From Astropecten irregularis (lineage: Eukaryota > Echinodermata > Asteroidea > Paxillosida > Astropectinidae), in NCBI GenBank assembly GCA_963971285.1, contig OZ020248.1:25719764-25783763 (forward strand): a DNA stretch of 64,000 nucleotides. Direction: 5' to 3'. Numbering within the stretch: the first letter of the stretch is position 1; the number at the start of each line of letters is the position of its first letter. The notes beneath the pieces are model-generated. The model made no database searches. It had not been told where the DNA came from and saw nothing but the letters and a program-made list of their open reading frames with translations. This document shows positions 16,121 to 60,201 of this stretch, in pieces. Made by a program: the position numbers and the translations under genes.

Positions 16121-19100
16121 ATGACGGAGAAAATCGACATGAGTCTTGAGGACATCATTAAGCAGAATAAGACGAGTAAAAGAGGCGGCGGTGGCGGTAG
16201 AGGACGGGGCGGTAGGGGACGTGGTGCTTCACAGACGCGTGGTGGTGCACGGACGTCCAGAGGCGGTGGTGGAGCTGGAGGTGCCGGGGGTGGCGGTGCG
16301 ATTAGACGGCAGGGCAGAGGCGGCGGTGCACGCTCCACACCTTACTCACGGGTATAAATGACATGTTTTTTTTTCAATATGGGAAAAAAGCAAAGAATTT
16401 CGCACATGTATCAAATTCAAGGTTTTAAACATGTGCAAAGGCAAAAGTCAATGATTAATGAATGAGCTGTGCCGTGCAATGACAAAAGTCCGTTTTCAAA
16501 ATTCTTGTTAAAACTAAAATGTATCACAACTATGTAAAATGACGCTTAAATAACAGCACCTTAGTGTACGGTACGAGTGTTAACCACAAAAAGTGAAATT
16601 CTTATGAAGAATCATGATTTTGAAGCGTATATTTTGCCGGCACTGTCATGCATTCTTCTTGTTGGCCATGCCGACTTCTTTCTCTGAAGGTTATTTTGCT
16701 GGAGGTACGCTGACTACGCTCAATAGTACTGCAAATTAGCCAATGGAAACTTCAAATAATCGTTTGTAGGAAGATTAGTGGTCCTTAAAAATTGTTTGGC
16801 CTAAGTTGTTGTACTGGTGCCCCGGAGAATTGTATGTGTTCCATGAATTTAACATTTCCCGCACAATCATGTGGCATTTGTAAGGAAAATGTCCTCAGAT
16901 AACACAAAGAATTGGATTGAAAATCACCTCTTCACTTTACAGAATGCATCAAGCATGAAACAAAGATCTCTCATCGTGTGATGAAGGACCCAGACCCAAG
17001 CATGAGATCTTCTCGAGATCTTTGAATTACCTCCTGAAAGCTCCCCTGGTTACACCAGAATATTCCCCAAATCATTTTGCCTCTGTGAAGTGCTTTCTGG
17101 ATTCTTCAATCTTTGCATCCAGATCCCGCAGTCATGGGCCCTTTTCTAAACCTCAGCTGCGGCTCTGGCTCTGTCATCCATATGCTAAGAATATAGGTTT
17201 TGAAGCTAAAGCTCTGTTTTCCTTTTCAAAGACGAGAATCTACATGTGTACTTCCAAACCACAGCCAAAAGCCTTTAATTTGATACCCGTTATTTTAGAA
17301 TGAATTCACGAAATGGAGCTTGAGCCAGAGCCAAGGGCCTTTTCCAAACAGAGGCCCCATTTTGTGAATCCATTCTTAAATAACGGGTATCGAAATAGAG
17401 GCTTTTGGCTGCGGTTCGGAAGTAGAGTTAGTAGATTCTCTGGTTTGAAAAGGAAAACAGAGCTATGAAAATCCACAACCTATATTTTCCGCATATGTTT
17501 ACGGAGCCTGAGCCTAAGCCTCCGTTTTCCAAAGGCCCTTAGATAACACCCATCAATTCAAACTATTAACAGGTACCTAACCTCCTCTTTGTGTTGTCTG
17601 CTCAACCAGCCCAAACAGGTACCAGACCAGTGGCAGCATGACATGTACGAGGGCGGAGCCAGCTCAGGGAGGATGCAGTACAGAGTGGGAGGCGGGACGG
17701 CAAGTACAGCTAATCAACAAGGGAAGCTCTTGGTGTCCAATCTAGATTATGGAGTCTCGGACGCAGATATTCAGGTAGGGATGAATCCTAACCACACCTT
17801 CGCCAAACTAAATCCATCTCCAGTATGTTGCAGGATTTTGAATTACACAGGACTGTAGAGCCCAGGCACTGTAACTTTATATGGGGGCTTGATGGCCCAA
17901 CTTGGCCCAAGTCCAAAGAATGTGCCATAGGGATACTGCACAGTGTGGTATTTTGAAGGACACAGGACTGTAGAGCCCAGGCACTGTAACTTTATATGGG
18001 GCTTGATGGCCCATTTTGGTCCAAGTCCATAGAATGTGCCATAGGGATACTGCACAGTGTGGTATTATGAAGGATACAGGACTGTAGAGCCCAGGCACTA
18101 AATTTATAAGGGGCTTGAAGGACCAACTTGGCCCAAGTCCAAAGAATGTGCCGTAGGTTTGCTACGCAGTATAATATTTGCATTCTATGTGTATCGAGTG
18201 TGATGCTTTTACATTGATCCACTCATTAAGGGATGAATGCTACAGAAAATAACAGGTCACTAACACAGAGGGTGAAGCCATATCATGCTTTACCACATAT
18301 TGTAACCTGTGTACATTGTCATATGGCTAAGTGACACACTTGCCAACCTTACTGTTTAAAATCAACCAAAATCAACACCTAGAGCAGCGTGTCGACTCAG
18401 TTTATTTTGATCTTGAAACTTCTCTGTGTTCATATTACAGGAATTGTTTGCCGACTTTGGCGTCCTCCAACACGCCGCCGTTCACTACGAGCGCTCGGGC
18501 AGGAGTATGGGGACAGCGGACGTTGTCTTTCAACGGAGGGCGGATGCCATCAAAGCAATGAAACAGTACAACAATGTACCTCTCGACGGTAATGAAATAC
18601 AGCTCTGTAAACCTAATAACAACATCTATAGCTGCTTAGAAGACCGGAAGAGTACCTCTTGAAGGTAGATGCGGCAACACGCTGCTGCAGCGCATGCTCC
18701 CACAGATTGATTGATCTGTCTAGATTTATTTTGCGTTTTTTGCCCAGACACCAGTAGCTGTATATGGTGTCTTGATGGCCCAACTTAACCATAGGGCCTT
18801 TAGTACGAAGTGAGGCTTGAGGCAAGGCTTCGGATGTATTTTGCTACCGCCATTTTGTGTCTTTAATGAATTGAGATACATGTCGAGGCTGGGACCTTTC
18901 TCCGTCTTCGTCATGTGGCCCAATCCCTTCGTTTTGTGGGTTTTAAATGGCGTAAGCGAAGTAAGTCGCAAGGCTAGCCTCAAGCCTGGTTTCGTCAAGG
19001 CCCAAAGTATGCACCACAGTGTGTAATGCACAAAATACACTCTTTGTATGGCTCTGGTATGGTTCCCAGCCCACAATACAAAGGTTAGAAGAAGATCTCA

Positions 19101-21803
19101 ACCACGTAGGTTGCTTGATGTACTTCTGTCACAAACACATGTTTAGTTTGGTATGAAACAACATTGATAAAACTAGTTGGAAGTGCTCATCTGGGCCCAG
19201 TTTCATGGAATCCATTTTTGTTCTTACGGGCACAGCTAAGCATGATATCTATTTCATGGAATCCATAAGCACGACTTTCAGTTATGGAAGAATTTTTAGG
19301 GTAACCGTGATTATTTTCTGCTAACAACCTGTCATATGCATTCTGCAGAAAGTCCTTGCTTACCGGTGGAATTTTTGTTTACAGTAATGTATTCCATGAA
19401 ACTGGGTCCTGTTGGGCTTAACCAAACAAAGCAACTATACAATAAAGGACTTGCCATACAGAATTAAAGCTCTAACTTATATTTCATCTTTTGAATGTCG
19501 CCCTCTATAGGTAGCCCAATGAACATCCAGCTGGTGTCCTTGCCAGGCGAGTACGAGTCACCAATGCGGCAGCAGAGCTCACGAGGGGGCAACCAGGGAG
19601 CCAGGACACAACGTGGCCGAGGTGCAGGGTAAGAAACACCTGCTTTATTTAGGGGAAAGGGTAGATCGAGAAGAAGGGGTTAGCTCGGGAGGGAGGCTGG
19701 AAGCATGTGCTGGCTGCGGTGATGGCACTGATGTCGTCATCCAATACCTGATAGTTCACAGGACTGAGGACAATCCAAAAGGAGTTTGAATACTGAAATG
19801 TTGCTGAATGGACTCTTGAGCTGACTACAAGCTCAGGCCCTAAATTTGGTTCATCAAGTGCCAAGACAACATTTCCATTGTAAAGGGCACCTCAACTTGC
19901 ACATATCAGACTGTCTTGAACGTTTGAAAGGGGACACCAAGGTGAATGGCTTCTGTGGCCCCAGGAAGATTCCAAGCCCGAGAGCTAAATCTGACAAACA
20001 TGGTTACTGCATGATGTCTGATGAAGTGGTTGTTGCTACGAAAGCTCATGCTCTTTTTAAACTCTAGTTAGTCAATATACATGTAGTGCTACTTGTATTT
20101 TTGTATTTTATATGTTATCTGACTGACACGGCTACCCACCATTATATGCATGATGTCTGTAACAAACTATTCTATTGGGTCATTTGCGAAATTAAAAAAG
20201 AACATAGACGATGAAAGATTCATTTTCTTATGCATTTTGTCATCCAGTTCAAGGTAAATCTAATCTGTATCAGCTAGCATAGCCACTAGGCTTAATCTTG
20301 ACTACGCCAATTCATGAATCTTGAATCTAGTAGGACTTTGCATTCTATGTGTATCGAGTGTGATGCTTTTTCATTGATCCACTCATTAAGGGATGAATGC
20401 TACAGAAAATAACAGGTCACTAACACAGAGGGTGAAGCCATATCATGCTTTACCACATGTTGTAACCTGTGTACATTATTGTACCGACTAAGAACCTCTA
20501 CTTGCTCATCAGACTGTCTGAAAAATCTGTAAGAGGACACCAAGTCTAAAGGCAAATGTCTTCTGTGGCCCCAGTAAAATTTCAAGCCCGAGAGCTAAAT
20601 CTGACAAACAAGGGGCCTTTCTCAAAGCTCGGCTCCTGCTCCATTTCGAGAATCCATTTCAAAATTACAGGTATCAAAATAGAGACTTTTGGCTGCAGTT
20701 AGGAAGTAGATTCTCTGATTTGAAAAAGGAAATAGAGCTTCAGCTTCAATGAAAAACCACAACTTATATTTTGAGCATATGGATGACAGAGACGAAGCCG
20801 GAGCCTGAGCCGAGCTTTGAGAAAGGCACAAGGTTACTGGATGATGTCTGTAACAAGTTTCTTAGTTTCTTGATGACAAATTATTTTTTTATATGCGAGT
20901 TTATTTATTTCTTTTGTATGCAGCCGGACCCAGTTCCAGAGCAACAGAGGCAATCGTACCCAAGGGCGCGGTGGCTCCAGGGGGCGAGGTGGCCGCGGGC
21001 GTGGCCGAGGTGGAGCTAAAGGGCCAACGCCCACTGCAGAGGAGCTAGACGCACAGTTAGATGCATACAATGCACAGGTGGGTATTTAATTGTGTTTTGT
21101 TTTCCAATTGGCTGCCAATAAGGTTTTCCCATTACTACAGGTGTAGTCAATTTTTTTTTCTCAGAATCGCACGTGAAGTTTCGTCATTTTCACCGGTAAA
21201 TTTCCCCCATTGCCACACATGAAATATTGCGGTTAAAGCATTCAAGCATTCAACCACTGGTACTCACCACCTCAGGTGAGTTTCACCATTTCAACACAAG
21301 TACAAAATGATTCACTGCAGTCCCTGCCATAAGAACAACAACAATTTGCCAGTGAACCCAATGGACCCTTCCGGCCTGTCAATCCGGCCTGTTCGCATTG
21401 ACCAATTGGAGGACGCGAAAGCTTAACAACAGTTGCTAACAGTCATTGTCGTCCATTACCTCGGTCAAACTCGGTCACAAGCTGTTAAAAATGTGTCCTT
21501 GTTAAGGTGGGCTGGGCTTAAAAAGCAAAGCCGGAACGGTCCGTTGTGGTCTTGGCAGCAGTCTAGCAAGCATATGGTCTTGGGTTCGAACCCTTCCTGA
21601 GCAACCCTTTCTCTATTTCTAACAGATGCTCGACAGTAATAAGCATTCAGTGTTTGTTGTTTTTCGGTAATTTTTTACTATCGGCCAAGCTTTGCAGATA
21701 ATGTAGCAACTTACCGGTATTGACATTACATTTGATCAGTAGCAGAAATCATTTTTGACATCTGTGTTTTTTTCCCAACATCTCTTTTCAGATGGATAGT
21801 TAA
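16121..21803 (+). CDS. ALYREF: mRNA export adaptor ALY/REF (THO complex subunit 4), six coding exons
   Basis: Nuclear TREX-complex adaptor that binds RNA and the helicase UAP56/DDX39B and hands mRNA to the NXF1 exporter. Exons: 16121-16351, 17610-17774, 18441-18588, 19511-19628, 20924-21077, 21792-21803; the frame closes to 275 residues plus TAA. Start: [17 protein letters not shown] is the N-terminal UAP56-binding motif. Residues about 20-75 are an RGG-rich arm. The RRM spans about 115-195 (RNP2 LLVSNL; RNP1-like [18 protein letters not shown] as in vertebrates). The second RG-rich region is about 205-255, and the C-terminal UAP56-binding motif [15 protein letters not shown] ends the protein. 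The last exon codes only MDS plus stop. Introns carry a satellite, MITEs and a 145-bp duplication. Confidence 0.96.
17136..17540. repeat. Two inverted copies of a GC-skewed MITE in ALYREF intron 1
   Basis: A forward copy (about 17136-17345: CCTCAGCTGCGGCTCTGGCT ... GAGCCAGAGCCAAGGGCC) abuts a reversed copy (about 17332-17540). Both contain the modules CAGCCAAAAGCC, AACGGGTATC or its complement, and GAGAATCTAC. The same family is at 20612, 35750 and 37005. Confidence 0.7.
17846..18165 (-). repeat. 114-bp satellite, three tandem units, in ALYREF intron 2
   Basis: GACTGTAGAGCCCAGGCACT recurs at 17851, 17966 and 18080 (period 114-115 bp). The units hold GGCCCAAGTCCA, AGAATGTGCCATAGGGATAC and CACAGTGTGGTATT. 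The reverse complement forms the larger array at 50205-51045. Confidence 0.9.
18179..18325 (+). repeat. Copy 1 of a near-identical intronic duplication
   Basis: About 145 bp beginning TTGCATTCTATGTGTATCGA is repeated almost exactly at 20339-20485 in a later ALYREF intron, with only a few substitutions (ACATTG/TCATTG, ACATATTG/ACATGTTG). Confidence 0.9.
19193..19410 (+). repeat. MITE, GGGCCCAGTTTCATGGAATCC family
   Basis: Terminal inverted repeats GGGCCCAGTTTCATGGAATC and TTCCATGAAACTGGGTCC lie in ALYREF intron 3. Sister copy at 33395-33700. Confidence 0.75.
19855..20010 (+). repeat. Dispersed repeat, 'GGGGACACCAAGG...AGCCCGAGAGCTAAATC' copy 1
   Basis: AGACTGTCTTGAACGTTTGA, GGGGACACCAAGG, GCTTCTGTGGCCCCAG and AAGCCCGAGAGCTAAATCTG recur at 20505-20612 in ALYREF intron 4. 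A third, more distant relative is at 41006-41165. Confidence 0.7.
20339..20612 (+). repeat. Copy 2 of the intronic duplication plus adjoining dispersed repeat
   Basis: 20339-20485 repeats 18179-18325. 20505-20612 repeats 19905-20010 and ends at CTGACAAACA, directly before the MITE at 20612. Confidence 0.8.
20612..20829 (-). repeat. GC-skewed MITE copy in ALYREF intron 4
   Basis: Terminal inverted repeats GGCCTTTCTCAAAGCTCGGC and GCCGAGCTTTGAGAAAGGC. The interior has ATTTCAAAATTACAGGTATC and TTTTGGCTGCAGTTAGGAAG, as in sister copies. Confidence 0.75.
21120..21560 (+). repeat. Repeat-derived region in ALYREF intron 5
   Basis: About 21360-21500 is the reverse-oriented relative of 5340-5520. 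About 21490-21600 continues with a GCCGGAACGG stretch and a B-box-like GGGTTCGAACCC at 21584-21595. Confidence 0.5.
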
Positions 21804-24352: not shown

Positions 24353-24745
24353 TTAAGGTAGTACATGTACATGTTCAATGTATCATACTTTGGTAACATG
24401 CCGAAACAGAATTCTTCACAGATTTGCCTATAACTTTAATACAGGGTATAAAGATGGTGATGGGAGAAACATACCGTTCAAATTTGCCTGCCTGAAATGC
24501 TTTATTCATCCAGAAAAGAGTAAAACAATTGGCCAAAAATAATTTTGATCTATTAAAGATAAAAAAAAATAACAGTGAAAAGATTTTTGAAATAGTGTGG
24601 ATGTTTTTCACTGTTTTCTCAAAAAGTGGGCACCGTATGGGACTGAAACTTTCACAGATGACTGTTGCTGTATCTTTCTTGATATTTTTGCACATGAATC
24701 TGCATTTCTTTGACAAAAACCAAAGTATGATACTACCTTTATTAA
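24353..24745 (+). repeat. TTAA MITE family, near full-length copy
   Basis: Left end TTAAGGTAGTA with an insertion before ATCATACTTTGG. The interior has AAGATGGTGATGGGAG and TTTCTCAAAAAGTGGGCACC. Right end ACCAAAGTATGATACTACC. Confidence 0.8.
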
Positions 24746-25653: not shown

Positions 25654-25747
25654 CATTACTCCATTAGTATTAGGCCCTACCTGGTACAGTATTTTCCTTC
25701 CTCCATGGATAAAGGAAATAAAAACATTTGTTTTGCAAAATTGTTTG

Positions 25748-27953: not shown

Positions 27954-27984
27954 TAAATCTTCTGTATTTGATTTTGCATCAGAC

Positions 27985-30900
27985 ATGGCAGACGAACCAG
28001 AAGTTACCCCACAACCCCTGGCCGAGGGCGAGGATGAAGAAGACGTCACTACCCCTGGCTACAAGCCTCCTGCTCAGAAGACCGTGGAGGAGATCAAACA
28101 GTTGGACGCTGACGACGAAAGCCTGGTGAAATACAAGAAGGCTCTACTGGCAGGCTCAGAGGATGTCAAAGGTGCATAGATGTCATTTATTGAACCTTCT
28201 CAAAGCTTTGGCTTTGGCTGTGGCTAAGGCTTTGGCTTCCTTCATTATATCCAGTAATTGCTGCTATCCAAACACATGTGTTTGTCTGAGCCGTAACCTT
28301 TAAAGATTGGCTGCAATGGGTGTTTTTGCTTATATATTGATGGATGTTAAAATCATTTTATTCATTTTATTAACTGGGAGGGGGAACGCCCCGCCCACAT
28401 TTAGCCATCCCGTCGTGACGTCATCTCGGGAACCCGGTAGCTGGTTCACAAGTCATCGAGCAATGCTAAACTGGTTCCCGCGTCACTGACGGCAATCAAA
28501 ATCCCGTACCAGATGCGGGAGAAAACAAAAAACAAACTTTAATCAAATTTAATATATTTAAAAAAAGTAAATTAAATTATTTTGGTGGATTTTTTAAATA
28601 TCATTGCACCCACCCTTTAAGTACCGTAGATGCTTTGCTTCAGAAGATATTATGTATCTCCACAAGCTATGCCCTGTATTTACAGTACAGACTACAGAGT
28701 CAACGTTTGATGTGATGCTTTCTATTTTGCTTGGAGTGTCCCCACTTGCCTTTTGTCTGTCAACAAAAGAATTTAAGTTCGCCGCACTCAATACTGCCGG
28801 GTGTACGTCCCCTAATCTTGGGACGTACACCCTGCAATTATAGAGTTCGGCGGAGAGTTAATGTCTTTGTTGCCTCACAAAAGGCAGGCGGGGACACTGC
28901 AGTAATGGCGGACAGTATATCGTGCTGTTGGATTTGTGTATAGGAAAACATTGCTAGACACAGGATAGGAAGGAAGGAAGGATTATAATTATTCATGAGA
29001 CAGGAAATGTTGGGTGACCGGAGTTTTGGTGTCATCGTTATCAAACGTCGTATCCTACAGAGTATTAACTGCTTCTTCTTTTTGTTTCTTTCATGATTTT
29101 GTCTGGATTTTTAGATGAAGGGGGCCCTAATGTCATCGTGAAAGCGTTTGTGGTGGCTCCTGAAGGCCGTCCTCCGATCGACCTGGATTTGACAGGTAGC
29201 TAAGTTGTTGTAAGACGTTCACATGGTGCACATCTCCCTTTTTTACTAGTTCTGACTGCCATTGTTCCCTTATGACCTCTCCCCAATAGCGCTCCACACT
29301 AATGACGTCACAAAATCCCCGGATGTCAGACAAACATTGACTCACACACGTAGTGTAATGTACAGGCACGCGCACACACTTGTGTGGTTGCAATGTTTGT
29401 CTGAGATCCGGTACTATTTTTAGCGCAAGTGCGGAGCGCTATTTTGCCGTACAACATCCCTACTTCAAAATCCTCCCCGGCTACCCCTTGAAGTTGTTTG
29501 GAATATCTGCAAACAGTTTTGGAGGAAAGTATAATAGGCTGCGGTAAAAATGGATAAGACTTGCGGAGACACCATGTATAACTGTTCACACTCTTCTTGG
29601 AAGGTGTGTGGTCCTGAGAAGGACCGATGAGAGTATTCAAGTTCTTGACATTTCGACCAGTGTGCTCTGGTCGTCCTCAGAAGAGAGGGCATGGTAAAAC
29701 GTAGCATGTGTCATTTAAGGGTGAAGAATTGAAGAACAATTTTAACCTCTGGGTTTAACACCTATGTTTCAAAAGAAGCAGACCCCAATGGGAGACTTTT
29801 GAGAACCGGTCTTCAAGTCAACAGCGCACGCGCAAGCAATTATGAGCATCCGCGCGTTGTTTTGCGCCTGGGCTGTTGTGTGTGCTCGTGCGCTGTTGAC
29901 TTGACGACCGGTTCTCAAAAGTCTCCCATTTAATGACTCTGCTTACTGAAGAATTCGGCGCTTATGATCCTCATTCTTCGCTTAGATGGTTAGCGCTGAA
30001 TTTCCACGCTAGCAGAGTGCGCGAGAAATCATTAGTTATGCATGGCACACATTGGCACTACTGAAAATTCTTCTCTAATCCATGAAATAGTAATAAGCAC
30101 AATATGTTCTGCTTACTGTAAGCGCCGATTCTATGCTTACTGTAAGCAGAGCTACAAAATTATGCCCAATTGTCTTTAGAAGTCGGAAATTTCTGTATTA
30201 ATTAATAATCAAGACGTAGTTTATGACATTCTCTTAATTTGCAAAACCACAAGTCTGGGACTTTTGCTTGTTATTCAGTTTTCTCTTTTCTTATGTTTTC
30301 AATTCACAGGTGATTTGACTGCCTTGAAAGACAAACGTAATGTGGTGAAGGAAGGAACCCAGTACAGAGTAGAAATCAGATTTAGGGTGAGTCTCCGACA
30401 CCAGGCTTTCCAAATTGATCTTTAACTTGCTGATTTATTTCCCTGACGATTTCCTCTGGTTTGCACACCTTCTACATTTGTCAGCTTGTTTGTCTGTTCT
30501 GTCAGGTGGTTGCTCACCTCAGTGAGACATGGCATTGCCACCACCTTCTACATTTGTCTGCTTGTTTGTCTGTTCTGTCAGGTGGTTGCTTACCTCAGTC
30601 AGACATGACATTGCCACCACCTTCTACATCTGTCTGCTTGTTTGTCTGTTCTGTCAAGTGGTTGCTCACCTCAGTGAGGCATATTTTCCTGGAACCATTA
30701 ACTATTAGTAACTGAGTAACTGCTAATTTTTAAACTTGGTAGCAATGTTGACGGTGTTGTTAGCTTAATATTCTTTTTCAGACAGTAAAAATCTGTTGCT
30801 GCTACATAGCAGCGAATATAACAGCATTTCCACAAACCCTACTACCAGTGCATGTTTTTGTCAACCGTAAAGACTTGATGAAAACTGTTGGTACGTCTTC

Positions 30901-32096
30901 TGCGTGTGTTTAAAGCTCAAAATCAAAACTGTAAATCAAAGCCGCTGAAGACGAAACCAAAAGAAGAACGCTTTTGCCCAGATGACAAAGAATTCTCAGG
31001 ATGAGGTTTTCTGTTCTTTTTCATTGTTTATTTTGGTATAGGTTCAACGGGAAATTGTTGCCGGGTTGAGATACCATCAAGTCACATACAGGAAGGGCAT
31101 CAAAGGTAATCACGGGAATCGTGTCTTAAGTGTTTGATTTGTTGCCCCATTCCTTTGTTCCCCTCCTATCCCATAATATTTCCTAGTCAGTGTTGCAGTC
31201 CGGACCATACAGGGTGATGAGTCAAAAAGAACTTGACTGGGATTGGTGATTTTTGCAAAGGAAACAAATGACACTCAAAAGTTCAGTAAAGCGTATATTT
31301 AACAAGCATTCTCTCCTGCTTATTAGAAAAAAAAGAATGAAAGAAATTGATCATTCTAACAAGGACTTGCAGGTATATCTATTTTAATAAAGGTACTCAT
31401 TTTGCAAGCTGTGCCAAACAGAAATGCTCCCAAATTACGTGTATAACTTTCAGGATTTGAAGATAGTGATGAAAGAAACATACCATTAAAATATTTCTGT
31501 CTGAAATGGTGTATTTATCCAGAAATTATTAAACAAAGACCTACAGTTTTGATCTCTGGGTAAGATCAAAACCATTCTCTATGTTTTTTAAGAAAAATGA
31601 GTAAGTTTTTCGTTATTTTCCCGTGACATAGATGTGCGATTGAGCTCAAATTTTCACAGGTTTATTATTTAATGTACAATGCTGGATCACACAATGTGTG
31701 AGTGCTATTCTGTGATTTTTACCAATCATTTATTATATGTTTAAATTGTACATTACCTGCCTGAAACGTCCTGACTTATTAATTCATTACCATAAAAACC
31801 TTAAAAAAATATCACAAATATGACTTCACCCCCCCCCCCTAAACAAAACCCCTCACTCACTACACCCCTACTTGCAAAAAAATCTCCATTTTACAGTGGA
31901 TAAAAGCGACTTGATGGTGGGTAGCTACGGACCTAAGAACGAGGAACACGTTTTCAAGACGCCGCTAGACAAAGCGCCCTCGGGCATGATGATGCGCGGC
32001 CACTACAAGGTCAAGAGCAAATTCGTTGATGACGACAAGAACATCATTCTCGAATGGGAGTGGAGCTTAGACATAACAAAGGATTGGGAGAATTAA
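27985..32096 (+). CDS. ARHGDIA: Rho GDP-dissociation inhibitor, tandem copy 1, five coding exons
   Basis: Cytosolic chaperone that extracts prenylated Rho/Rac/Cdc42 from membranes and blocks GDP release. Exons: 27985-28171, 29115-29195, 30310-30386, 31042-31105, 31897-32096 (TAA); introns in phases 1, 1, 0, 1; 202 residues (human ARHGDIA has 204, recalled). The acidic N-terminal arm, about 1-60, contains YKPPAQKTVEEIKQLDADDESLVKYKKALL, the helices that hold the GTPase switch regions; Asp44 corresponds to human Asp45. The immunoglobulin-like prenyl-binding domain follows: DLDLTG, KEGTQYRVEIRFRVQREIVAGLRY, DLMVGSYGPKNEEHVF, DDDKNIILEWEWSLDITKDWEN. The ATG sits 2 nt after an acceptor (TTTTGCATCAG|AC), so a non-coding first exon must exist upstream. 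It is followed by a long 3'UTR. Confidence 0.96.
28735..28909. repeat. Palindromic MITE with GTACGTCCC hairpin, RhoGDI-1 intron 1
   Basis: Ends AGTGTCCCCACTTGCCTTTTGT / ACAAAAGGCAGGCGGGGACACT. The centre holds a perfect 13-bp hairpin GGGTGTACGTCCC/GGGACGTACACCC (28799-28832). Sister copy at 40885-41250. Confidence 0.8.
29285..29443. repeat. MITE with AATAGCGCTCC termini, RhoGDI-1 intron 2
   Basis: Terminal inverted repeats AATAGCGCTCCACACT and AGTGCGGAGCGCTATT, with internal GACAAACATTG/CAATGTTTGTC. Sister copies at 38953 and 56547. Confidence 0.85.
29787..29930. repeat. Foldback element with 44-bp arms, RhoGDI-1 intron 2
   Basis: Arms 29787-29830 and 29887-29930 are reverse complements with one mismatch (AATGGGAGACTTTTGAGAAC...). 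The 56-nt centre is CG-rich (CGCGCGTTG). No clear target duplication was found. Confidence 0.85.
30468..30690 (+). repeat. 76-bp tandem repeat, about three units, RhoGDI-1 intron 3
   Basis: CCTTCTACATTTGTC recurs at 30468, 30544 and 30620; units include TTGTCTGTTCTGTCAGGTGG and CACCTCAGTGAGACATG. Confidence 0.9.
31391..31746 (+). repeat. TTAA MITE, subfamily b, RhoGDI-1 intron 4
   Basis: AAAGGTACTCATTTTGCAAG at the left; interior AAGATAGTGATGAAAGAAAC, GTGCGATTGAGCTCAAATTT; right end ACCAATCATTTATTATATG. Confidence 0.7.
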
Positions 32097-34120: not shown

Positions 34121-34145
34121 AATTCATATTTGGATATATAATGTC

Positions 34146-37218: not shown

Positions 37219-37254
37219 TATTGCCATGTACATTGTATAATGTACATTGACAGC

Positions 37255-37860: not shown

Positions 37861-38045
37861 GATTTTAACAAAAAGAACGTCATTCTCCAATGGGAGTTGG
37901 GCTTAGACGTAAAGAATGACTGGGAGTAAGGGAAGTTACAGTAAGTCCCTCGAGACTACTGTGATTTCAAAAAAATTGACGCAGCTGTAATGAGCTGCAC
38001 GTGCTCGGCAGTTAAAGGCGTCTTCATCAATTTTGAAGATTGTGA

Positions 38046-41774: not shown

Positions 41775-42375
41775 TGACCAAGGGCACTATGGCATTGATT
41801 GGTCTGGGCAACAAAGCAATGATCAGGGACACCAAGGCAATGACCAGGGGCACCAAGGCAATGACCAGGGGCACCAAGGCAATAATCAGGGACACCAAGG
41901 AAATGACAAGGGGCACCAATGCAAAGACTAGGGGCACCAAGGCAATGATCAGGGACACCAAGGCAATGATCAGGGGCACCAAGGCAATGACCAAGGGCAC
42001 CAAGGCAATGACCAGGGGCACCAAGGCAATGACCAGGGGCACCAATGCAATGACTAGGGGCACCAAGGCAATGACCAGGGACACCAAGGCAATGATCAGG
42101 GGCACCAAGGCAATGACCAAGGGCACCAAGGCAATGACCAGGGGCACCAAGGCAATGACCAGGGGCACCAATGCAATGACTAGGGGCACCAAGGCAATGA
42201 CCAGAGGCAACAAGGCAATGACCAGGGGCACCAAGGCAATTGACACAGGGCATCAAGGCAATGACCAGTTGCATTAGGGCAATGACCAGGGGCACCAAGG
42301 CAATGACCAGGAGCACCAAGGCAATGACCAGGGACATCAAGACAATGACCAGGGGCAACAAGGCAGGGTACCAAC
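41775..42375 (+). repeat. 21-bp minisatellite, about 28 units
   Basis: Unit GGGGCACCAAGGCAATGACCA with variants (GATCA, GACTA, CACCAATGC). Variants recur with a 126-bp (6-unit) higher-order period, e.g. CACCAATGCAATGACTAGGGG near 42038 and 42164. Because 21 is a multiple of 3, several frames on both strands stay open (e.g. 41689-42246 reading LVIALVP repeats); these are not genes. Confidence 0.95.
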
Positions 42376-48461: not shown

Positions 48462-51400
48462 ATGGCTGAAACTGAAGAGAAAGCCGCGCCCTCTTGTCAC
48501 CACGGTGAAGACGCACCCGATGGCCTCGCCTACAAGGCCCCCGCCCCCAAAACCCTGAAAGAAATTCAAGAGATGGACAAGGACGACGAGAGTCTGGCCA
48601 AATACAAGAAGTCACTACTCGGAGAGGATGCAGAAGCAGGAGGTTAGTTCAATGTGGAGTCTGGGTACCAGACTTGGCATAAGGCTCCATTTTTTAGAAG
48701 TCTTGACGCACTGGAAATTTAACCCCTTCAGCCCGGGATTTTCTCTTGCTTTGTCTTTCCGGCCTCATTATCAGCCAGCGGTCAAATAGAGGTCATCTCG
48801 CCGCGTCATGTGTGCAGGGAGCTTGGTGTAAACAATGAAGGCACACAATGGTTGAATACCACAGGACAATAGCCCAAATTCCAGATGGTCATAATCGGTG
48901 TAACAGCAGCTGTGTTTGGGGCTCACAGATTACCGTCTTCTTGAAAATGCTGATCTATTCAAATGCAAATCAATGTGGTAAATGTACTGCAATGAGTAAA
49001 TGTTTTTGGACAATAAAGGGTTATTGAACCTCTTGTTCCAAACAGTACCCCCTTTCAATGTATTTCAATGGAAATAGCAAATCAATATGCCTAATTCATG
49101 GTGTATCCATCCTGCATTCGAAGCAGTGCAATCAAACCGAGGCTTGGATTCAAAATAGTCTGGTACCCATTTTCTTTTTAGAATTGGTGTTATCTTTTCT
49201 AACGGGTACACAAGGAAAGTGACAAAATGGATGTGCCATGAATAATTAAAGGCTATTATGAATGTTGTCACGCCATGAGGCGAACTGCTAAAGATGCTTC
49301 CTGTCCGGACGGGGGTTAAAACTCTGGGAAAGTTGAATGATTTGTCCTCCGCCTTTTTCACAGAAACTGGAGAAGGACCAAAGGTTACCTTGAAAGAATT
49401 GGCTCTAGTGGTTGAAGACCATGATGCTATTGTCTTGGATTTAACAGGTACGGTACACATTTCAAATGTCATGTTATTATAATTTCTTTCAAAATTTGTT
49501 TGATTTTCCAAAATTTAACTTTCAAGCTTAAAGGTATAATACATGATTGGTAAAGGTCACAGAACAGCACTCGCTTTGTCTAATCCAACATGTACATGAA
49601 ATGATAAACCTGTGAAAATTTGAGCTCAATCAAACATCCGAGTCACGAGAAAATAGCAAAAAAAAAATTCTTATAAAACATAAAGAATGGATTTGATCTT
49701 ACACATACACAAGATCAATACTGTTTTGGGTCATTGTTTGACTGATTTCTGGATAAATTCACCATTTCAGGCGGAGACATTTTAACGGTATGTTTCTACC
49801 AGCACCATCTTCATACCCTGAAAGTTATACATAAGTCTGTGAACATTTCTGTTTGGGAAGGTTACCAACCCTGTACTGTACCTTTAGTATTCTTGCTTAG
49901 ACTATGACTATGTTTTCCCAGTGGACATTCATTTATTTGTGAAATCAGTTTTTTGCGGGTTAATTTTTCAGTGTCTCATTTAACTACATTTGTAATGAAC
50001 GAGATGCATTTATTGTCTGAGCAGTTTTAGCAAAAGTAGAGTATTGGGCAAATGTTCGGAGTTACGTAATATTATTTCAATTTGTTCACAATGGAATATT
50101 TTTTCAGGTGATCTGGCCAAGCTGAAGGAGAAAATCTACGTGATAAAAGAAGGAGTGGTCTACAAGGCTAGGCTTACATTTTTGGTACGTATACCTTCAT
50201 ATTATGTTACAGTGTTTGGGCTCTACAGTCCTGTGTTCTTCAAAATACCACACTGTGCAGTATCCCTATGGCACATTCTTTGGACTTCGACCAAGTTGGG
50301 CTATCAAGCCCCATTGTAAAGTTACAGTGCCTGGCCGGGCTCTACAGTCATGTGTCCTTCAAAATACTACACGGTGCAGTATCCCTATGGTATATTCTTT
50401 GGACTTGGACCAAGTTGGACCATCAAGCTCCATATAAAGTTACAGTGCCTGGGTTCTACAGTCCTGTGTCCTTCAAAATACCACACTGTGCAGTATCCCT
50501 ATGGCACATTCTTTGGACTTGGACCAAGTTGGGCCATCAAGCCCCATATAAAGTTACAGTGTCCAGGCTCTACAGTCCTGTGTCCTTCAAAATACCACAC
50601 TGTGCAGTATCCCTATGGCACATTCTTTTGACTTGGACCAAGTTGGGCCATCAAGCCCTATATAAAGTTACAGTGCCTGGGCTCTACAGTCCTTTGTCAT
50701 TCAAAATACCACACTGTGCAGTATCCCTATGGCACATTCTTTGGACTTGGACCAAGTTGGGCCATCAAGCCTCATATAAAGTTACAGTGCCTGGGCTCTA
50801 CAGTCCTTTGTCCTTCAAAATGCCACACTGTGCAGTATCCCTATGGCACATTCTTTGGACTTGGACCAAGTTGGGCCATCAAGCCCCCATATAAAGTTAC
50901 AGTGCCTGGGCTCTACAGTCCTGTATCCTTCAAAATACCACACTGTGCAGTATCCCTGTGGTACATTCTTTGGACTTGTACCAAGTTGGGCCATCAAGCC
51001 CTATATAAAGTTACAGTGCCTGGGCTCTACAGTCCTTTGCCACATCCATTGGGCTTTGGGTGAATTAGGCCATCAAGCTTAAGGATAAACCAGGGTGCCT
51101 AAGCCTTCTGCTCTAAGCCAATCAAAATCCAGTACCACCATGACTGCGTTTTGTGAATATTTGTTGGAAAGAATCAAAACAAACTTTGTGTTGTGCCCAA
51201 AGTATTTTGAAACCCCTATTAAACCCACCTCCATATCACAGTTTACCACACATGGTTTTCCCTGTGGTATTGAAGTGTGGTATCCCAAATACCTCAATAC
51301 ACAACAGTGTGGGTTTGTGTGGTTATGTGTGGTTTATGATCCAGTTCCCCTGTGGAGATTGTGGTAGTGTGTGGTATTAAGCAGCTCTTGTCTTGTGTGG

Positions 51401-52934
51401 CATGTGCAGTAATATTCTTGCATTATTATGCTTGTCGTATTTTACAGGTGGAAAATGACATAGTCTCTGGATTGAAGTACGTGCAGACATCGTACAAGTC
51501 ACTCATCAAATGTAAGAACCGTTTGAAAACGATTTGTACAAAATTAAAAAAATTGCTAGATAAGCCAAATCATAAAAAAGACACATCAGGCAAAACTAGC
51601 CTTAAAAAAAACCGTAATATCATACTTTGGTAGCATACCAAAACAGAAATCTTCACAGATTTACCTATAACTTAGAGGGTATAAAGATAGTGATGGTAGA
51701 AACATACAGTTAAAAACATATTTTGCCTAAAATGCTGTATTTCTCCAGAAAAGAGTCAAACCATTTGACCAAATACGAATTTGATCTTCGGAAGATCCAA
51801 AATCCTGTGAAAAGATTATTTAAAAAATACCGTGGGCATTTTTCACTGTTTTCTCAACAAAAAAACATTGCAAATGATTCTGCATTTCTTTGACAAAAAC
51901 CAAATTATGAAATTACCTTTAAAAACTGTTGGAGAAATATCTTCAGATTTTGTTTGAAAATGTGTGAGTTTGATTTACAAGGAAATCTGCCTATATGAAT
52001 TTCATTAGTTTTTTTAAAGCCCAACTCAAAAGGTCGGAATGGTATTTTGAGTTTTTGTTTTTTTCAGGCAGGATATGGACTCAGGAATACACAAAAGTTC
52101 TTTTTTGACTCTAAGTATTCCACTGGATACACTCTTTAGAGGAGTTTTCATTCTCCCCTCAATTTGCCCAAAATCCGAAAAGCGCGAGGAGTGAGTTTGT
52201 AAACATGATGACGTCATTCTGGGACTTCCAACATTCACACTGATATGGTGTTCCATTTGTGCCGTCAACGCGTCACATTTTTTTGCCGTCACATTTGTTT
52301 TTTGGCGTCGCATTTTTTTTGGGCGATGAGCAGTTTCCAGCAGTTTATTACTTGTATCAATTTGTATTGTATTACATGTATTGTAAATGCGACTCCAAAA
52401 ACCCCCCCCAAAAAACAAACAAACAAATGCGACACGTTGACTGCACAAATGGAACACCATATCAGTGTGAATGTAGCAAGTCCCAGAATGACGTCATCTT
52501 GTTTACAAACTCACTCCTCGCGCTTTTCGGATTTCGGGCAAAGTGGGGGGAGAATGAAAACTCCTCTAAAGAGTGTATCCAGTAGAATACTTGTCAAAAA
52601 AAGAACTTCTGTGTATTCCTGAGTCCATATCCTACCAGACAATACAACAACTCAAAATACCATTCCGACCTTTTGAGTTGGGCTTTAAATGAAAATAATT
52701 GAAAAGATTTGAATGTTTGTTTTTTGTTTGGTTGAAGGTGATACATCCTCCTACATGTTGGGAAGCTACGGCCCGAAGAAGGAACTGCAGGTCTTCACGG
52801 CCCCCGTGGAAGAGTTCTCCAAGGGCATGCTGGCCCGCGGTCACTACACCGTCCACAGCAAGTTCATGGACGACGATGGCCGAGACTTCCTGAGCTGGGA
52901 ATGGGCGTTTGACCTCAAGAAAGACTGGGAGTAG
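48462..52934 (+). CDS. Rho GDP-dissociation inhibitor, tandem copy 2, five coding exons
   Basis: Same role as its neighbour at 27985: a cytosolic inhibitor of GDP release and a membrane extractor for Rho-family GTPases. Exons: 48462-48642, 49364-49447, 50108-50184, 51448-51511, 52738-52934 (TAG); intron phases 1, 1, 0, 1 and positions match copy 1, so the two arose by gene duplication. 200 residues. N-terminal arm KAPAPKTLKEIQEMDKDDESLAKYKKSLL (Asp42 corresponds to human Asp45); core VLDLTG, KEGVVYKARLTFLVENDIVSGLKY, SSYMLGSYGPKKELQVF, LSWEWAFDLKKDWE. Compared with copy 1 the PPAQK motif is APAPK and the strand before VENDIV has Leu where copy 1 has Arg. The ATG follows an acceptor (AAATTGCAG|AACCC at 48449/48450), so a non-coding upstream exon exists. 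Intron 3 holds the satellite; intron 4 holds a 677-bp inverted repeat. Confidence 0.95.
49531..49886 (-). repeat. TTAA MITE, subfamily b, RhoGDI-2 intron 2
   Basis: CTTAAAGGTATAATACATGATTGG on the left and TACCAACCCTGTACTGTACC then TTTA on the right; reverse orientation, like 38046. Confidence 0.8.
50205..51045 (+). repeat. 114-bp satellite, more than seven tandem units, RhoGDI-2 intron 3
   Basis: GGCTCTACAGTCCT recurs at about 50218, 50338, 50452, 50566, 50679, 50793, 50908 and 51022, a period close to 114 bp. Units contain CAAAATACCACACTGTGCAG, TATCCCTATGGCACATTCTT and TTGGGCCATCAAGCCC. It reads open for 208 codons because 114 is a multiple of 3. The reverse complement forms the array at 17846. 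Confidence 0.95.
51290..51412 (+). repeat. Dispersed repeat, 'GTGTGGTTATG...AAGCAGCT' family
   Basis: GTGTGGTTATGTGTGGTTTA, CCCCTGTGGAGATTGTGG and GTGTGGTATTAAGCAGCTC match 853-975 and 40475-40585. Confidence 0.7.
51606..51925 (+). repeat. TTAA MITE, internally deleted, RhoGDI-2 intron 4
   Basis: ATCATACTTTGGTAGCATACC at the left, interior AAGATAGTGATGGTAGAAAC, a deletion after TTTCTCAACAAAAAA, right end ACCAAATTATGAAATTACC. Confidence 0.7.
52013..52689. mobile_element. 677-bp inverted-repeat element with about 255-bp arms
   Basis: The outer 41 bp are perfect reverse complements (TTTAAAGCCCAACTCAAAAG at the left, CTTTTGAGTTGGGCTTTAAA at the right). Similarity continues inwards to about 52273 and 52430 with scattered changes (GGAATACACA, AGCGCGAGGAGTGAGTTTGT, ATGACGTCAT, ATGGTGTTCCATTTGTGC). 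The TTTAAA ends are themselves palindromic, so the target duplication is ambiguous. It ends 48 bp before the last RhoGDI-2 exon. Confidence 0.9.
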
Positions 52935-52989
52935 GATTTGTTAGCTGGTCATCAGTCTCGTCGTTATTTGCTTTGCCAGAGGGGTACCG

Positions 52990-55757: not shown

Positions 55758-56110
55758 TATTTTAAAGGTAATTTCATACTTTGGTTTTTGTCAAAGAAAT
55801 GCAGATTCATGGGCACAAATGTCAAAAAAAGATACAGCAACAGTCATTCTGTGAAATTCCCAGTCCAATACGGTGCCCACTATTTGAGAAAACAGCGGAA
55901 AAAAATGCTCACAGTATTTTCAAATCTATTTACAGGAGATTTGATCATCCTGAGGTCAAAACTGTTTTTGGTTATATCCGGAAAAGAGTTTACTCTTTCT
56001 AGATAAATACAGCATTTCTGGCAGAACAATTTTAATAGTATGTTTGGACCATCACCATCTTCATACCTTGTAAGATTTTGGTATGCTACCAAAGTATGAT
56101 AGTACCTATA
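55758..56110 (-). repeat. TTAA MITE, reverse orientation
   Basis: TTTTAAAGGTAATTTCATACTTTGG at the left; interior AGATTCATGGGCACAAATG and GATTTGATCATCCTGAGGTC; right TATGCTACCAAAGTATGATA. Confidence 0.75.
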
Positions 56111-56546
56111 AGTGTTTTAGGATTGTCTCGCCCTGTCATTCAAAATGAAGTACAGCTGTCTCCATTTGAAACCCCTAATAGAGGGTACCACATTGTGGTT
56201 TTGCTAACAATGAGCTTGAGCATAACTTCTGTGCTTGACCATAGGGCAGTTAGATTTATGTCTCAGACGCCACTAATGACATCTTCAAAACTTGTTCAGA
56301 GGAGGGCGGGTTGGGACAGTCGAATGAAGTGTGGAAATATTTTGATAGCCGTGTTACAACTCAGTTATATTTCTTGCCATGGTGTCTAGTTTTACCTTCC
56401 AAACCAGAGACCAATATTAATCGGTTTACTTCCACATTTTACATTCTTCCTCTGTTTATTTGTGCTTTTTTTACTAGAATATAAAAACATAGATGTTTCT
56501 TACAGCTTACAAAAGTGGGTCATTTTCAAAGCATCGCCCAACTGGC
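56111..56546 (+). other. Intergenic, nothing recognised
   Basis: No coding features. An open frame of 103 codons beginning at 56078 overlaps the MITE end and has no family resemblance. Confidence 0.35.
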
Positions 56547-56685
56547 AATAGCGTTCCACACTAATGACGTCACACCATATGCATGCATGCACACACATAC
56601 CCCCATTCACCACACGTTTGCATGGCCGGTTGCAATGTTTGTCTGAGGTTCGGTGCTATTTTTAGCGCATGTGCACAGCGCTATT
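56547..56685. repeat. AATAGCGCTCC MITE, third copy
   Basis: TIRs AATAGCGTTCCACACT and ATGTGCACAGCGCTATT with TAATGACGTCACA and GGTTGCAATGTTTGTCTGAG inside, as at 29285 and 38953. Confidence 0.8.
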
Positions 56686-59600
56686 ATGAACTTACTGTGT
56701 GATTTATATTTTGCAGAACTTCGTGTCCAAAAGTACTGAAAAAAGCATGCTAACTTTCAGGCAATGGATCGATGCAAAATTGTGCATCATTGGTATTAAA
56801 AAGTGCAAGCATACAGCTAGAATTTCATGCTCACTTGTGAAATACGTCCCTATCCTTCTGCAATTTTCTTGTTTTGCCGTAATTGGCTCAGAATATATTT
56901 TATATGAGCAATGCTTTGAAAAACTGTAAGCCCCTGAATTGGCTGTAATTTATATGCAAAAGATGCAGTATTATTACAAGTGTTCTGTTTAAAAGTGAGG
57001 GTACCTGGTACGGATGTATACATGCTGTTACAGTCATGTAGAGTAAATACGGGAAAAATATACATGAAGTTAATTGAAACTGTGAGTGGGTAATCATCAA
57101 TGATTGTATGTTCGTGTATATAAAAGCCACGTGGCCAAATACCGGTACAGATCATGAATTGAATTGGAAAAGAAAAAAGGATTGTAATATAAACGTGCAT
57201 AGTGTAAGTCTGTTGCTCTGGAAATATGAGAGTGGAAACAAAATACAGTGGAACCTTGTTAATTAGAGTTTCTTTGAACTTTACTGGAACTTTGCTGGAA
57301 CCTTGTTATAATAGGAACCTTGTATTCTCAGGAATGAGAACAATGGAGAACAAAGGATTGGGACCAACAATTGTTCTTGTTTTAGTAGAATGTTGTAGTA
57401 ACAATGCTCTTATTAACGAGGTTTCGATGTATACATTATAAAAAGTGTATATGGCAGATAAGAGCAGCTTAAAGAATGTAATGCGAACATGCATAGTTCA
57501 GTCTCGTTCCCATGGAAACATATATATAAAAGGCAGAAATGATGCATTTTACAAGTGGGAGTTAATGAGTTTTTGGCGCCATTTGTTCGGTGAGATTATT
57601 TCGGATTATGAATTATGGATAGGGGGGGCCTACTTTGAGTGTATTATTTACAAGCCGATTTATTGTTATTCCTCAAGCTATACTTCGCTGATACATTTCC
57701 AAACGACACAGTAATGTAGCCATTTTGTTTAGATAAAAGCATATAGCTAGTTTGATGTATGTTACTGTCTTTATATTATACAGGAGTTAGTTATATGAAG
57801 TCACTTCAACTACACACAGCATATGGGACACAAAGCTTTTTAATTAAATAGCATGCATTCTAATTATATAAATATCTGTTTGGGTGCATTGATGTGTAGC
57901 CAGCCAGTCCAGGACCTGCCAGAAAATTTAATTATGGACTTTTCAAATGAATAGGAGGGGAAAAAAAACAATTTGTTACAGAATTTATAGTCTTGCCAAA
58001 ATATAACCTGAGTATTATGTATGGGCCTTTGCTGTTGTAATTGGTGTGTTGTTGTTATTTTTGGTTTCATTTTTGTGTTTTGTGGCGTTATTTTTGGTCT
58101 GGTTTTTTTTTTGGGGGGTGGGTTCAGGTTTTTTTTTTGTTTTTTTTTGGTTTTTTATTTTTGTGCTTTGGGTTTTTTTGTTATGTCTGTTTTGTTTTTT
58201 CAGGTTGTTGTTGTTTTTTTTTTTTTTGGGGGGGGGGGGGGGGGTGGGTGTTTGTTTGTATTTTTTAAACACATCTCTGTTACAAATAGTTGAATATGCA
58301 CAATATTTTCCTGGGTGCTAGTGCAGAAATATTTTGAAAAGATGTAGTAGTTTGTTCTGTTCAATGTGTTGTATGTTGTTTGATATGCACTGCTTCTTTG
58401 AAAACTCTGTGGATATTGCGCTATAAAGTCACCATTATCATCAGCAACCTTTTCATTGTTTTTTTTTCACTGAAAAAGCTTGTTTCCCAAAGCTTTGGGC
58501 ATTTTATATTAATATTGGTGTGAAAATTTCATGATTGAGCCTGGGTAATGTTAACAAAGAGCTTAAAAGAAGGATGAGTTTTGTATGCTAATAGAATTCC
58601 CTAAAGTGCCATGTTTATATTTAAAATTGTGTCATGCATCATGTATGTGAAATCTTGACTCGCCTTTTTCTGTTTTTAGTCATTTTTGTACGTTAAAATG
58701 GAATCAACAAATGCATTTTACTCAATTCTTAAGAACCATAAATTATTAACAGTTTTATCTGATTAGCTAAAAACAAATGAGCAGTTTTTCTTGGTGATAG
58801 CATTTTGTTCGTGAATTCCCATTTTCTAAAAATATCAAAACTTTTATCAGAATCAAGATTTAATTATTTAAAAAATGCCCAGAATATGTTTTGTTAAAAA
58901 AGCCATATGTTTTAGTACGTTAATTAATTTTTTTGTACAACTGTGAAAAACATATGTTTTATTCTTTTAAAACATATTGTTTTTTTTTTAATTATCTCTT
59001 TGCAGACAAAGAAAAGGTGTAGGAATTGAAACAGTATTAAATACAAAGCTCTGCTCTTGCCAGAACCATTTAAAAAGAAATTATCGTAATGAAATTTGAA
59101 AGCGTAAATTTGGTGCCGTGCGAAAAACAATGATCAAAATTGTTGTACGTGAATTGTGAAGCAACCCATACGATCCTCTGATTTCATTGCTTATATAATT
59201 GTCCATTGTGATCAAGAATCATTCTATTGGGCAATAAATAAAGTGCTTTTTATTATTGAAAAAAGTGTCTTCCTTTTAAAAAGTTCTCATGCACATTATT
59301 TGTAATGGTGGAAATTGACAAACAGTAAGTATGAATAAATGCAGTAAAAACATGAATATGCTAATGAACAGAAATTGTGTTTCATTTTATTGTCTCATAA
59401 AAATTGCCATTTATTACTTTTTGTTACCTATACTGAATTTGACCTTAAATCAGCAGTATTTAATTTATTACAGGTTTTTTTTTTATTAAACTCAGGGATT
59501 TGGCCTTCATTTGGTTATTCATATTGAATTTATTGCTGTAAATTATTATTTATTAATTTTTTTTACTAGGAATTCGACCTAATTTTGGCAATATTAAATT

Positions 59601-59880
59601 TGTTGCTGCATGTTTTTTTGTTTTTGAACCTTTTTTCCCCAAATACAAGTATTTTTTATCCTATTTTTAGTATTTTTCAGTTCTAGTTTCTTTTCCTTGT
59701 CTTTTCAATATTATAGATTATAATAAATGATACATTAATTTTAAGTTGAATGCGAAATGTCACCAAAAAACAAACGCGGGTAGCCAGCATTTCTTCCCAA
59801 AAAATAAATTAATTTGTTGATCAGAACAGTATTTTGTGGATTTTTACTGCTGGTATGCCAGACCAGTGAAAAATTGACAC
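56686..59880 (+). other. Intergenic upstream of PDI, AT-rich; no gene seen
   Basis: 58030-58260 is a T/G low-complexity tract ending in a G run (58228-58242) able to form a G-quadruplex; open frames over it are artefacts. 58411-58432 (GATATTGCGCTATAAAGTCA) resembles a SINE tail. AATAAATAAAG at 59235-59245 looks like a polyadenylation signal, but no gene is attached to it. Confidence 0.45.
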
Positions 59881-59916
59881 GACCCTAGTATAAATGAGGT
59901 CATAGGTCACCGTGGA

Positions 59917-59935
59917 CCAATCAGCGAGCCCCACG
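59917..59935 (+). promoter_or_regulatory. ER stress response element (ERSE, CCAAT-N9-CCACG)
   Basis: CCAAT (59917-59921), nine bases CAGCGAGCC, then CCACG (59931-59935): a perfect match to the ERSE consensus bound by NF-Y plus ATF6/XBP1 in vertebrates. It lies 122 bp upstream of the PDI start codon, a sensible promoter distance. A reversed CCACG (CGTGG) also sits at 59911-59915. Confidence 0.85.
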
Positions 59936-60056
59936 GAACTCTGCAGGTTGTATATTACGCATGCTCAAATTACTATGGGTTCTCTTTGCCACGTTTGACG
60001 ATCGTCTGCGTTTGGGTGACTTCTCCTCAGTGTCCTCAAATTTTGTTCCCCTAAAA

Positions 60057-60201
60057 ATGAAGATTTCTCTGGTAATTTTCGCCGTCTTGGCCGTCGCTGC
60101 CTATGCAGCGGAGGTCACGGAGGAAGACAATGTATTCGTCTTGACTGATGATAATTTGCAGCCGTTTATTGATGACAATGAACACGTACTCGTCGAGTTT
60201 T
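60057..60201 (+). CDS. P4HB: Protein disulfide isomerase (PDIA1/P4HB-like), first coding exon only
   Basis: ER-lumen oxidoreductase; only residues 1-48 plus one base are in the window. MKISLVIFAVLAVAAYA is a clear signal peptide, with cleavage probably after YA. Then AEVTEEDNVFVLTDDNLQPFIDDNEHVLVEF opens the first thioredoxin domain, aligning with the family pattern VLxLxxxNF...LVEFYAPWCGHC (recalled). The exon ends TTT T|GTAAGT in phase 1, exactly before the Tyr of YAPWCGHC. The active-site exon was not found in 60202-64000, so intron 1 exceeds 3.8 kb. The start has A at -3. Another in-frame ATG at 59961 would add 32 residues ahead of the signal peptide and is unlikely. The ERSE upstream supports ER-stress control. 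PDIA1 versus another PDI subtype is not proven by this exon alone. Confidence 0.88.

What the first reader, a model, noticed from the sequence alone, without database searches (positions are those of the whole stretch)
16121..60201. ALYREF - RhoGDI - PDI gene block in the same order and orientation as human 17q25.3
All genes are on + in the order ALYREF, RhoGDI, RhoGDI, PDI. On the human map I recall ALYREF, ARHGDIA and P4HB as neighbours, co-oriented in the same transcriptional order. Retention of a three-gene cluster of unrelated functions over bilaterian or deuterostome time would be unusual and may reflect shared regulation or slow rearrangement.
Basis: partly seen in the sequence, partly recalled or inferred. 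Interest (0 to 1): 0.75.

Follow-up and report, generated by a model that had tools for sequence, protein, structure and literature searches.

The report
Ancient ALYREF–RhoGDI–P4HB gene block
[quoted passage not shown] part of this neighbourhood was already known to be very old, and here its RhoGDI gene has been duplicated.

Summary
Complete, spliceable genes for ALYREF (275 aa), two RhoGDIs (202 and 200 aa) and a PDI lie in that order on the + strand. The window's own genome supplied exons 2–10 just past the window: 503 aa, two CGHC motifs, C-terminal KDEL, 53% identical to recalled human P4HB, and far closer to P4HB than to PDIA3 or PDIA4. An exact ER-stress element, the only one in the window, lies upstream of its ATG. 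Held papers give the human order P4HB–ARHGDIA–THOC4(ALYREF)–ANAPC11 and let ALYREF's strand be deduced; order and orientation match.

Most of this is published: Moretti et al. 2017 (PMC5722932) report same-direction RhoGDI–PDI pairing in most tetrapods, echinoderms, a nematode, a cnidarian and a placozoan. Not found in my searches: ALYREF as a third member, and a RhoGDI duplication inside the block. ANAPC11's best match is on another contig; RPL3 lies upstream instead. Why the genes stay together is undecided. Other animal assemblies could not be compared here.

The parts
16121..21803 (+). ALYREF (THOC4) gene, 6 coding exons, 275 aa: 16121-16351, 17610-17774, 18441-18588, 19511-19628, 20924-21077, 21792-21803
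   Evidence: Spliced model, all introns GT-AG, no internal stop; best PDB match THO complex subunit 4, E 1.4e-68 over residues 1-275
27985..32096 (+). RhoGDI-A, 5 coding exons, 202 aa: 27985-28171, 29115-29195, 30310-30386, 31042-31105, 31897-32096
   Evidence: Spliced model, phases 1,1,0,1; RhoGDI 1 (1cc0_E) E 9.3e-66; Pfam PF02115 in first and last exons
37873..37926 (+). 54-bp relic of the 3' end of RhoGDI exon 5 (45 of 54 bases identical to RhoGDI-A)
   Evidence: Local alignment score 63 against a maximum of 27 in 300 shuffles; 45/54
48462..52934 (+). RhoGDI-B, 5 coding exons, 200 aa: 48462-48642, 49364-49447, 50108-50184, 51448-51511, 52738-52934
   Evidence: Spliced model with the same intron phases as RhoGDI-A; RhoGDI 1 E 3e-55; 47.7% identical to RhoGDI-A
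59911..59935 (+). Candidate compound ER-stress element upstream of PDI: CCAAT-N9-CCACG (59917-59935, +) overlapped by ATTGG-N-CCACG (59911-59921, other strand)
   Evidence: Each is the only exact match in 64 kb (expected 0.16 and 0.08; at least one in 15 and 8 of 100 shuffles); ends 122 bp before the PDI ATG. Consensus and its meaning recalled.
60057..60201 (+). P4HB (PDIA1) exon 1: N-terminal hydrophobic stretch and start of the a domain, phase 1, donor GTAAGT. Exons 2-10 continue outside the window at window coordinates 64320-71147 (L005)
   Evidence: full protein 503 aa, two CGHC, KDEL; PDB P4HB E 4.2e-170

Best explanation
This is an inherited gene neighbourhood (conserved microsynteny). 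The ancestor shared by this animal and vertebrates already had ALYREF, a RhoGDI and a P4HB-type PDI head to tail in that order. Its vertebrate descendants are the 17q25.3 block and, after duplication, the ARHGDIG-PDIA2 and ARHGDIB-ERP27 pairs. In this lineage the RhoGDI duplicated in place into two intact genes plus a third remnant. The products do separate jobs (from known families): mRNA export adaptor, Rho GTPase inhibitor, ER disulfide isomerase. PDI has its own candidate ER-stress promoter, which speaks against a single transcription unit. Shown here: gene models, order, orientation, PDI identity, promoter motif. Shown in papers: the human order and the antiquity of the RhoGDI-PDI pair. 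Inferred: common descent of the triple and in-place duplication. The most likely reason for retention is the published RhoGDI-PDI co-regulation, with ALYREF carried along by low local rearrangement; this last step is only inferred.
For: Complete models on one strand. P4HB identity is clear with the full gene: E 4.2e-170, against 1.1e-71 for PDIA3 and 1.4e-62 for the PDIA4 fragment. Human order and orientation from three held papers; a chicken table lists P4HB, ARHGDIA, ALYREF consecutively. RhoGDI-PDI pair reported in P. miniata, S. purpuratus, C. elegans, N. vectensis and T. adhaerens. In the whole genome, the 4 Rho_GDI exon matches among 7 scored candidates all fall in these two genes. The two copies share intron phases and lie together, opposite human alpha/beta/gamma, with support 98/97 in a five-sequence unrooted tree.
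Against: Conservation stops at ALYREF: the ANAPC11 matches are on contigs C21 and C27, not C11, and tblastn gave no credible ANAPC11, PCYT2, MCRIP1 or PPP1R27 match within 80 kb on either side (PPP1R27 hit only ankyrin repeats). No shared promoter motif was found: the only exact ERSE is PDI's, and a look at 600 bp before each ATG found nothing informative in common (true transcription starts unknown). An exact ERSE somewhere in 64 kb is not itself rare (15 of 100 shuffles); its weight rests on its position. Gaps between coding regions are 6.2, 16.4 and 7.1 kb.
Confidence: 0.88

Rival explanations
1. Only the RhoGDI-PDI pair is ancestral; ALYREF became a neighbour independently in this lineage and in vertebrates.
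For: Moretti 2017 describes only the pair in invertebrates, and ALYREF and THOC4 occur 0 times in its main text. Other 17q25.3 neighbours tested are not nearby.
Against: It needs the same gene to land on the same side of RhoGDI in the same orientation twice, among some 20,000 genes (inference).
Confidence: 0.08
2. The block is a selected regulatory unit of three genes, held together by shared enhancers or chromatin, not simply inherited. (Compatible with the best explanation; it concerns the cause.)
For: PMC5722932 reports shared enhancer blocks, co-induction after CRISPR activation and physical interaction for P4HB/RhoGDI-alpha (abstract, Results section 5, Discussion).
Against: In the window only PDI has an exact ERSE and no shared promoter motif was seen. 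The cited paper itself names low rearrangement as an alternative, and says nothing of ALYREF in its main text.
Confidence: 0.3
3. The PDI is another subtype (PDIA4, PDIA3), so the human match is accidental.
For: Exon 1 alone matched only PDIA4 in the PDB (E 0.029), and scored higher against recalled human PDIA4 (72) than human P4HB (51).
Against: The full gene has P4HB-like length, two CGHC, an acidic tail and KDEL, and its match to P4HB is some 98 orders of magnitude stronger than to PDIA3.
Confidence: 0.01

Closest known systems
Conserved PDI/RhoGDI microsynteny (Moretti et al. 2017, PMC5722932)
   Same: RhoGDI directly upstream of a PDIA1-family gene, same transcription direction
   Different: Here the RhoGDI is a tandem pair plus a remnant, and ALYREF precedes it; ALYREF is not mentioned in that paper's main text, though figures and supplements were not visible to me
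Human 17q25.3 block (P4HB-ARHGDIA-ALYREF-ANAPC11)
   Same: Same three genes, same order and relative orientation
   Different: One RhoGDI in human; ANAPC11 beside ALYREF in human but best match on contig C21 here; RPL3 and an ankyrin ORF precede ALYREF here
Human 16p13.3 ARHGDIG-PDIA2 and 12p12.3 ARHGDIB-ERP27 pairs
   Same: Same RhoGDI-PDI adjacency and direction (PMC5722932 Table 1)
   Different: No ALYREF partner named there; products of duplication in the vertebrate ancestor according to that paper

Membership tests
PDIA1 (P4HB) | PDI with two CGHC sites aligned full length to P4HB | tested here: met
   CGHC at residues 53 and 393 of 503; residues 7-503 aligned to P4HB
PDIA1 (P4HB) | acidic tail and C-terminal KDEL | tested here: met
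   sequence; KDEL
PDIA1 (P4HB) | closer to P4HB than to PDIA3 and PDIA4 | tested here: met
   4.2e-170 against 1.1e-71 (PDIA3) and 1.4e-62 (241-residue PDIA4 fragment)
RhoGDI | Rho_GDI domain (PF02115) and full-length similarity | tested here: met
   first and last exons of both genes exceed the Pfam cut-off; near full-length match to RhoGDI 1
ALYREF/REF | central RRM | tested here: met
   RRM_1 above cut-off in exon 3
ALYREF/REF | similarity through both ends, where the conserved short motifs lie (role recalled) | tested here: met
   match to THO complex subunit 4 over residues 1-275
Conserved PDI/RhoGDI microsynteny | neighbours in the same transcription direction | tested here: met
   no gene seen between them in the ORFs scanned
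Conserved PDI/RhoGDI microsynteny | shared cis-regulatory element | not testable with these tools
   no chromatin or expression data; a motif look at promoters found nothing shared
Human 17q25.3 block extended by ALYREF | ALYREF directly before RhoGDI, co-oriented | tested here: met
Human 17q25.3 block extended by ALYREF | ANAPC11 beyond ALYREF | tested here: not met
   ANAPC11 matches on contigs C21 and C27; window on C11
Human 17q25.3 block extended by ALYREF | triple present in other invertebrate lineages | not testable with these tools
   no other animal assemblies held

The most novel reading that the evidence does not exclude
ALYREF-RhoGDI-P4HB is one ancient three-gene block, of which the published RhoGDI-PDI pair is only a part, kept together by selection. 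A bolder extension: RPL3, about 10.4 kb upstream here and on human 22q13 (recalled), also belonged to the ancestral segment and was sorted to a sister copy after vertebrate genome duplication.
Probability: 0.25. Interest if true: 0.55.

Novelty: new member of a known kind. Interest (0 to 1): 0.35.

Why it matters
It adds a third gene to a neighbourhood already put forward as gene order maintained for over 800 million years. It also offers a natural test: when the RhoGDI member duplicates inside the block, does each copy keep the supposed co-regulation with PDI? If ALYREF proves part of the block in other phyla, explanations based only on a PDI-RhoGDI partnership would be incomplete.

Tried and rejected
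PDI subtype from exon 1 alone: undecided. Its only PDB matches were PDIA4. Against recalled N-termini it scored worm pdi-2 84, fly Pdi 79, PDIA4 a0 72, P4HB 51, PDIA4 a 51, PDIA2 45, PDIA3 45, PDIA6 30. The full gene settled it.

ANAPC11, PCYT2, PPP1R27 in the window, and these plus MCRIP1 in 224 kb: nothing credible. The PPP1R27 query hit only ankyrin repeats of the 518-aa ORF.

Shared promoter motifs: nothing informative. The kilobases upstream of ALYREF and RhoGDI-A share 22 11-mers, not examined further; possibly an interspersed repeat. No exact TGACGTGG in the window.

Third RhoGDI as a real gene: rejected; only 54 bp were recognised. Other matches between the RhoGDI loci and the spacer look like interspersed repeats.

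Identifying the species: not achieved. Linkage of Axin (PF08833), MCRIP1 (PF14799) and PYCR (PF14748), and a GFP-family check (PF01353): never answered by the machine.

Full report
Observation. With recalled human proteins as queries, tblastn found RPL3, ALYREF, two RhoGDI genes and a weak match to a first exon of a PDI (E 0.17), all on the + strand. I set exon boundaries by hand and checked them. ALYREF has 6 coding exons (16121-21803, 275 aa). RhoGDI-A has 5 (27985-32096, 202 aa). RhoGDI-B has 5 (48462-52934, 200 aa). All introns in these models are GT-AG, there are no internal stops, and both RhoGDI genes have the phase pattern 1,1,0,1.

Identities. ALYREF matches THO complex subunit 4 over its full length (E 1.4e-68). 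RhoGDI-A and -B match RhoGDI 1 (E 9.3e-66 and 3e-55). PDI exon 1 by itself was ambiguous: 2 of 177,635 distinct PDB sequences matched at E up to 10, both PDIA4, and the exon scored no Pfam family at E up to 1.

The PDI resolved. The window's genome became searchable: 475.7 Mb in 168 contigs, with the window at C11:25719764-25783763. I fetched 80 kb on each side. P4HB matches continue at window coordinates 64322-71144 on +. The spliced gene has 10 coding exons (the last ends at 71147) and 503 aa, and is 53.2% identical to recalled human P4HB over 453 residues. It has CGHC at residues 53 and 393 and ends in KDEL. The best PDB match is P4HB, E 4.2e-170; PDIA3 follows at 1.1e-71 and a PDIA4 fragment at 1.4e-62.

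An independent sign is the promoter. CCAAT-N9-CCACG, the ER stress element (recalled consensus), occurs once in 64 kb at 59917-59935, with 0.16 expected and at least one in 15 of 100 shuffles; with one mismatch allowed there are 2, below the 3.15 expected. ATTGG-N-CCACG (ERSE-II, recalled) occurs once and overlaps it, with 0.08 expected and at least one in 8 of 100 shuffles. What counts is the position: both lie within 150 bp upstream of the PDI ATG. No exact TGACGTGG was found.

Human comparison. PMC5607249 (passage read) lists '...FAM195B, P4HB, ARHGDIA, THOC4, NANPC11, NPB, PCYT2...' in a 17q25.3 duplication. PMC5722932 Table 1 gives P4HB at 81,843,159-81,860,694 and ARHGDIA at 81,867,721-81,871,406, both reverse, 7.1 kb apart. 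PMC3815023 (passage read) names ALYREF-APC11 as a divergent pair. With APC11 beyond ALYREF, ALYREF must be transcribed in reverse too. Read in the direction of transcription, human is ALYREF, ARHGDIA, P4HB, as in the window. A chicken table lists the same three consecutively (PMC11507135, passage).

What is already known. Moretti et al. 2017 (PMC5722932; abstract, Results section 5, Discussion and found passages read) report that all three human RhoGDI genes flank a PDIA1-family gene in the same direction. The pairs are kept in almost all tetrapods and largely disrupted in teleosts. The pair is found in P. miniata, S. purpuratus, C. elegans, N. vectensis and T. adhaerens, not in a sponge or a ctenophore, and appears disrupted in the arthropods and lophotrochozoans examined. 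They credit an earlier genome-wide survey (their reference 54, Irimia 2012; not held). ALYREF and THOC4 have 0 occurrences in the main text; figures and supplements were not visible. Searches for the triple in a synteny context gave nothing: ALYREF+ARHGDIA+P4HB, 9 papers, none with synteny in the title or the shown start of the abstract (2 of the 9 opened); THOC4+ARHGDIA+P4HB, 1 paper, a copy-number study; ALYREF+microsynteny, 1 paper, on divergent pairs; ARHGDIA+ALYREF+synteny, 0; RhoGDI+disulfide isomerase+synteny+echinoderm, only Moretti. The library holds open-licence papers only.

RhoGDI duplication. The copies are 47.7% identical to each other and 43-54% to the three human paralogs (human sequences recalled). 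In an unrooted five-sequence tree they lie together opposite the human three at 98/97. Genome-wide, the 4 exon-level matches among 7 scored candidates all fall in these two genes; a diverged copy could be missed exon by exon. A 54-bp relic of exon 5 lies between them at 37873-37926 (45 of 54 bases identical to RhoGDI-A, score 63 against a maximum of 27 in 300 shuffles). The simplest reading is duplication in place inside the block, independent of the vertebrate paralogs, and old, given the divergence.

Limits of the block. Of the window's 301 ORFs of 60 aa or more, 225 were scanned against Pfam (recount), and no further gene was seen in the block; short or divergent exons would be missed. Upstream of ALYREF are an ankyrin ORF on - (10795-12348) and RPL3 on +. 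The ANAPC11 model matches contigs C21 (best, E 7.7e-15) and C27, not C11, so the human neighbour beyond ALYREF is not linked. The 80-kb flanks contain a tektin (PF03148), a Cullin-binding gene (PF03556), a NACHT gene (PF05729) and a rhodopsin-family GPCR (PF00001); six further coding-looking pieces downstream of P4HB matched no Pfam family. None of these is one of the 17q25.3 genes I searched for.

Mechanism. Shared descent of the order is close to certain for RhoGDI-P4HB and very likely for ALYREF. Why it persists is not shown. Published co-regulation and interaction support selection on RhoGDI-P4HB; the window adds only that P4HB has a candidate ER-stress promoter of its own and that no exact copy of it stands before the others (true transcription starts are unknown). 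Slow rearrangement remains a sufficient explanation for ALYREF.

Species. Not identified. One locus holding the only RhoGDI genes found, with the pair retained, suggests a non-vertebrate deuterostome such as an echinoderm, since the paper found the pair broken in the arthropods, molluscs and annelids it examined; nematodes, cnidarians and placozoans also keep it and are not excluded by that argument. This is inference.

Noticed in passing
432-5706 (+): RPL3 coding exons (by tblastn, not fully spliced) lie upstream of the block; two SNORD83-like (RF00593) snoRNAs, just above the gathering score, sit between its exons at 2411-2506 and 3084-3179. PMC3412847 (passage) places human SNORD83A/B in RPL3 introns 5 and 7, so this host-gene link also looks conserved.
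   Followed up: partly
10795-12348 (-): 518-aa open frame with ankyrin repeats in its first third; identity beyond that unknown.
   Followed up: partly
17835-18157 and 50198-51036: A 114-bp tandem repeat of what looks like the same family in ALYREF intron 2 and RhoGDI-B intron 3, in opposite orientation (compared by eye).
   Followed up: no
41806-42365; also window coordinates 70557-70784 and 116038-116349 outside the window: 21-bp tandem array (26.6 copies) open in more than one frame as a 7-residue repeat; similar arrays lie in P4HB's intron 9 and further downstream.
   Followed up: no
15119-15191 (+): tRNA-Thr (GGT) about 0.9 kb upstream of the ALYREF ATG.
   Followed up: no
L018:4633-7455 (-): Large NACHT gene about 53 kb upstream of the window, next to a death-domain-like stretch by eye.
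   Followed up: partly
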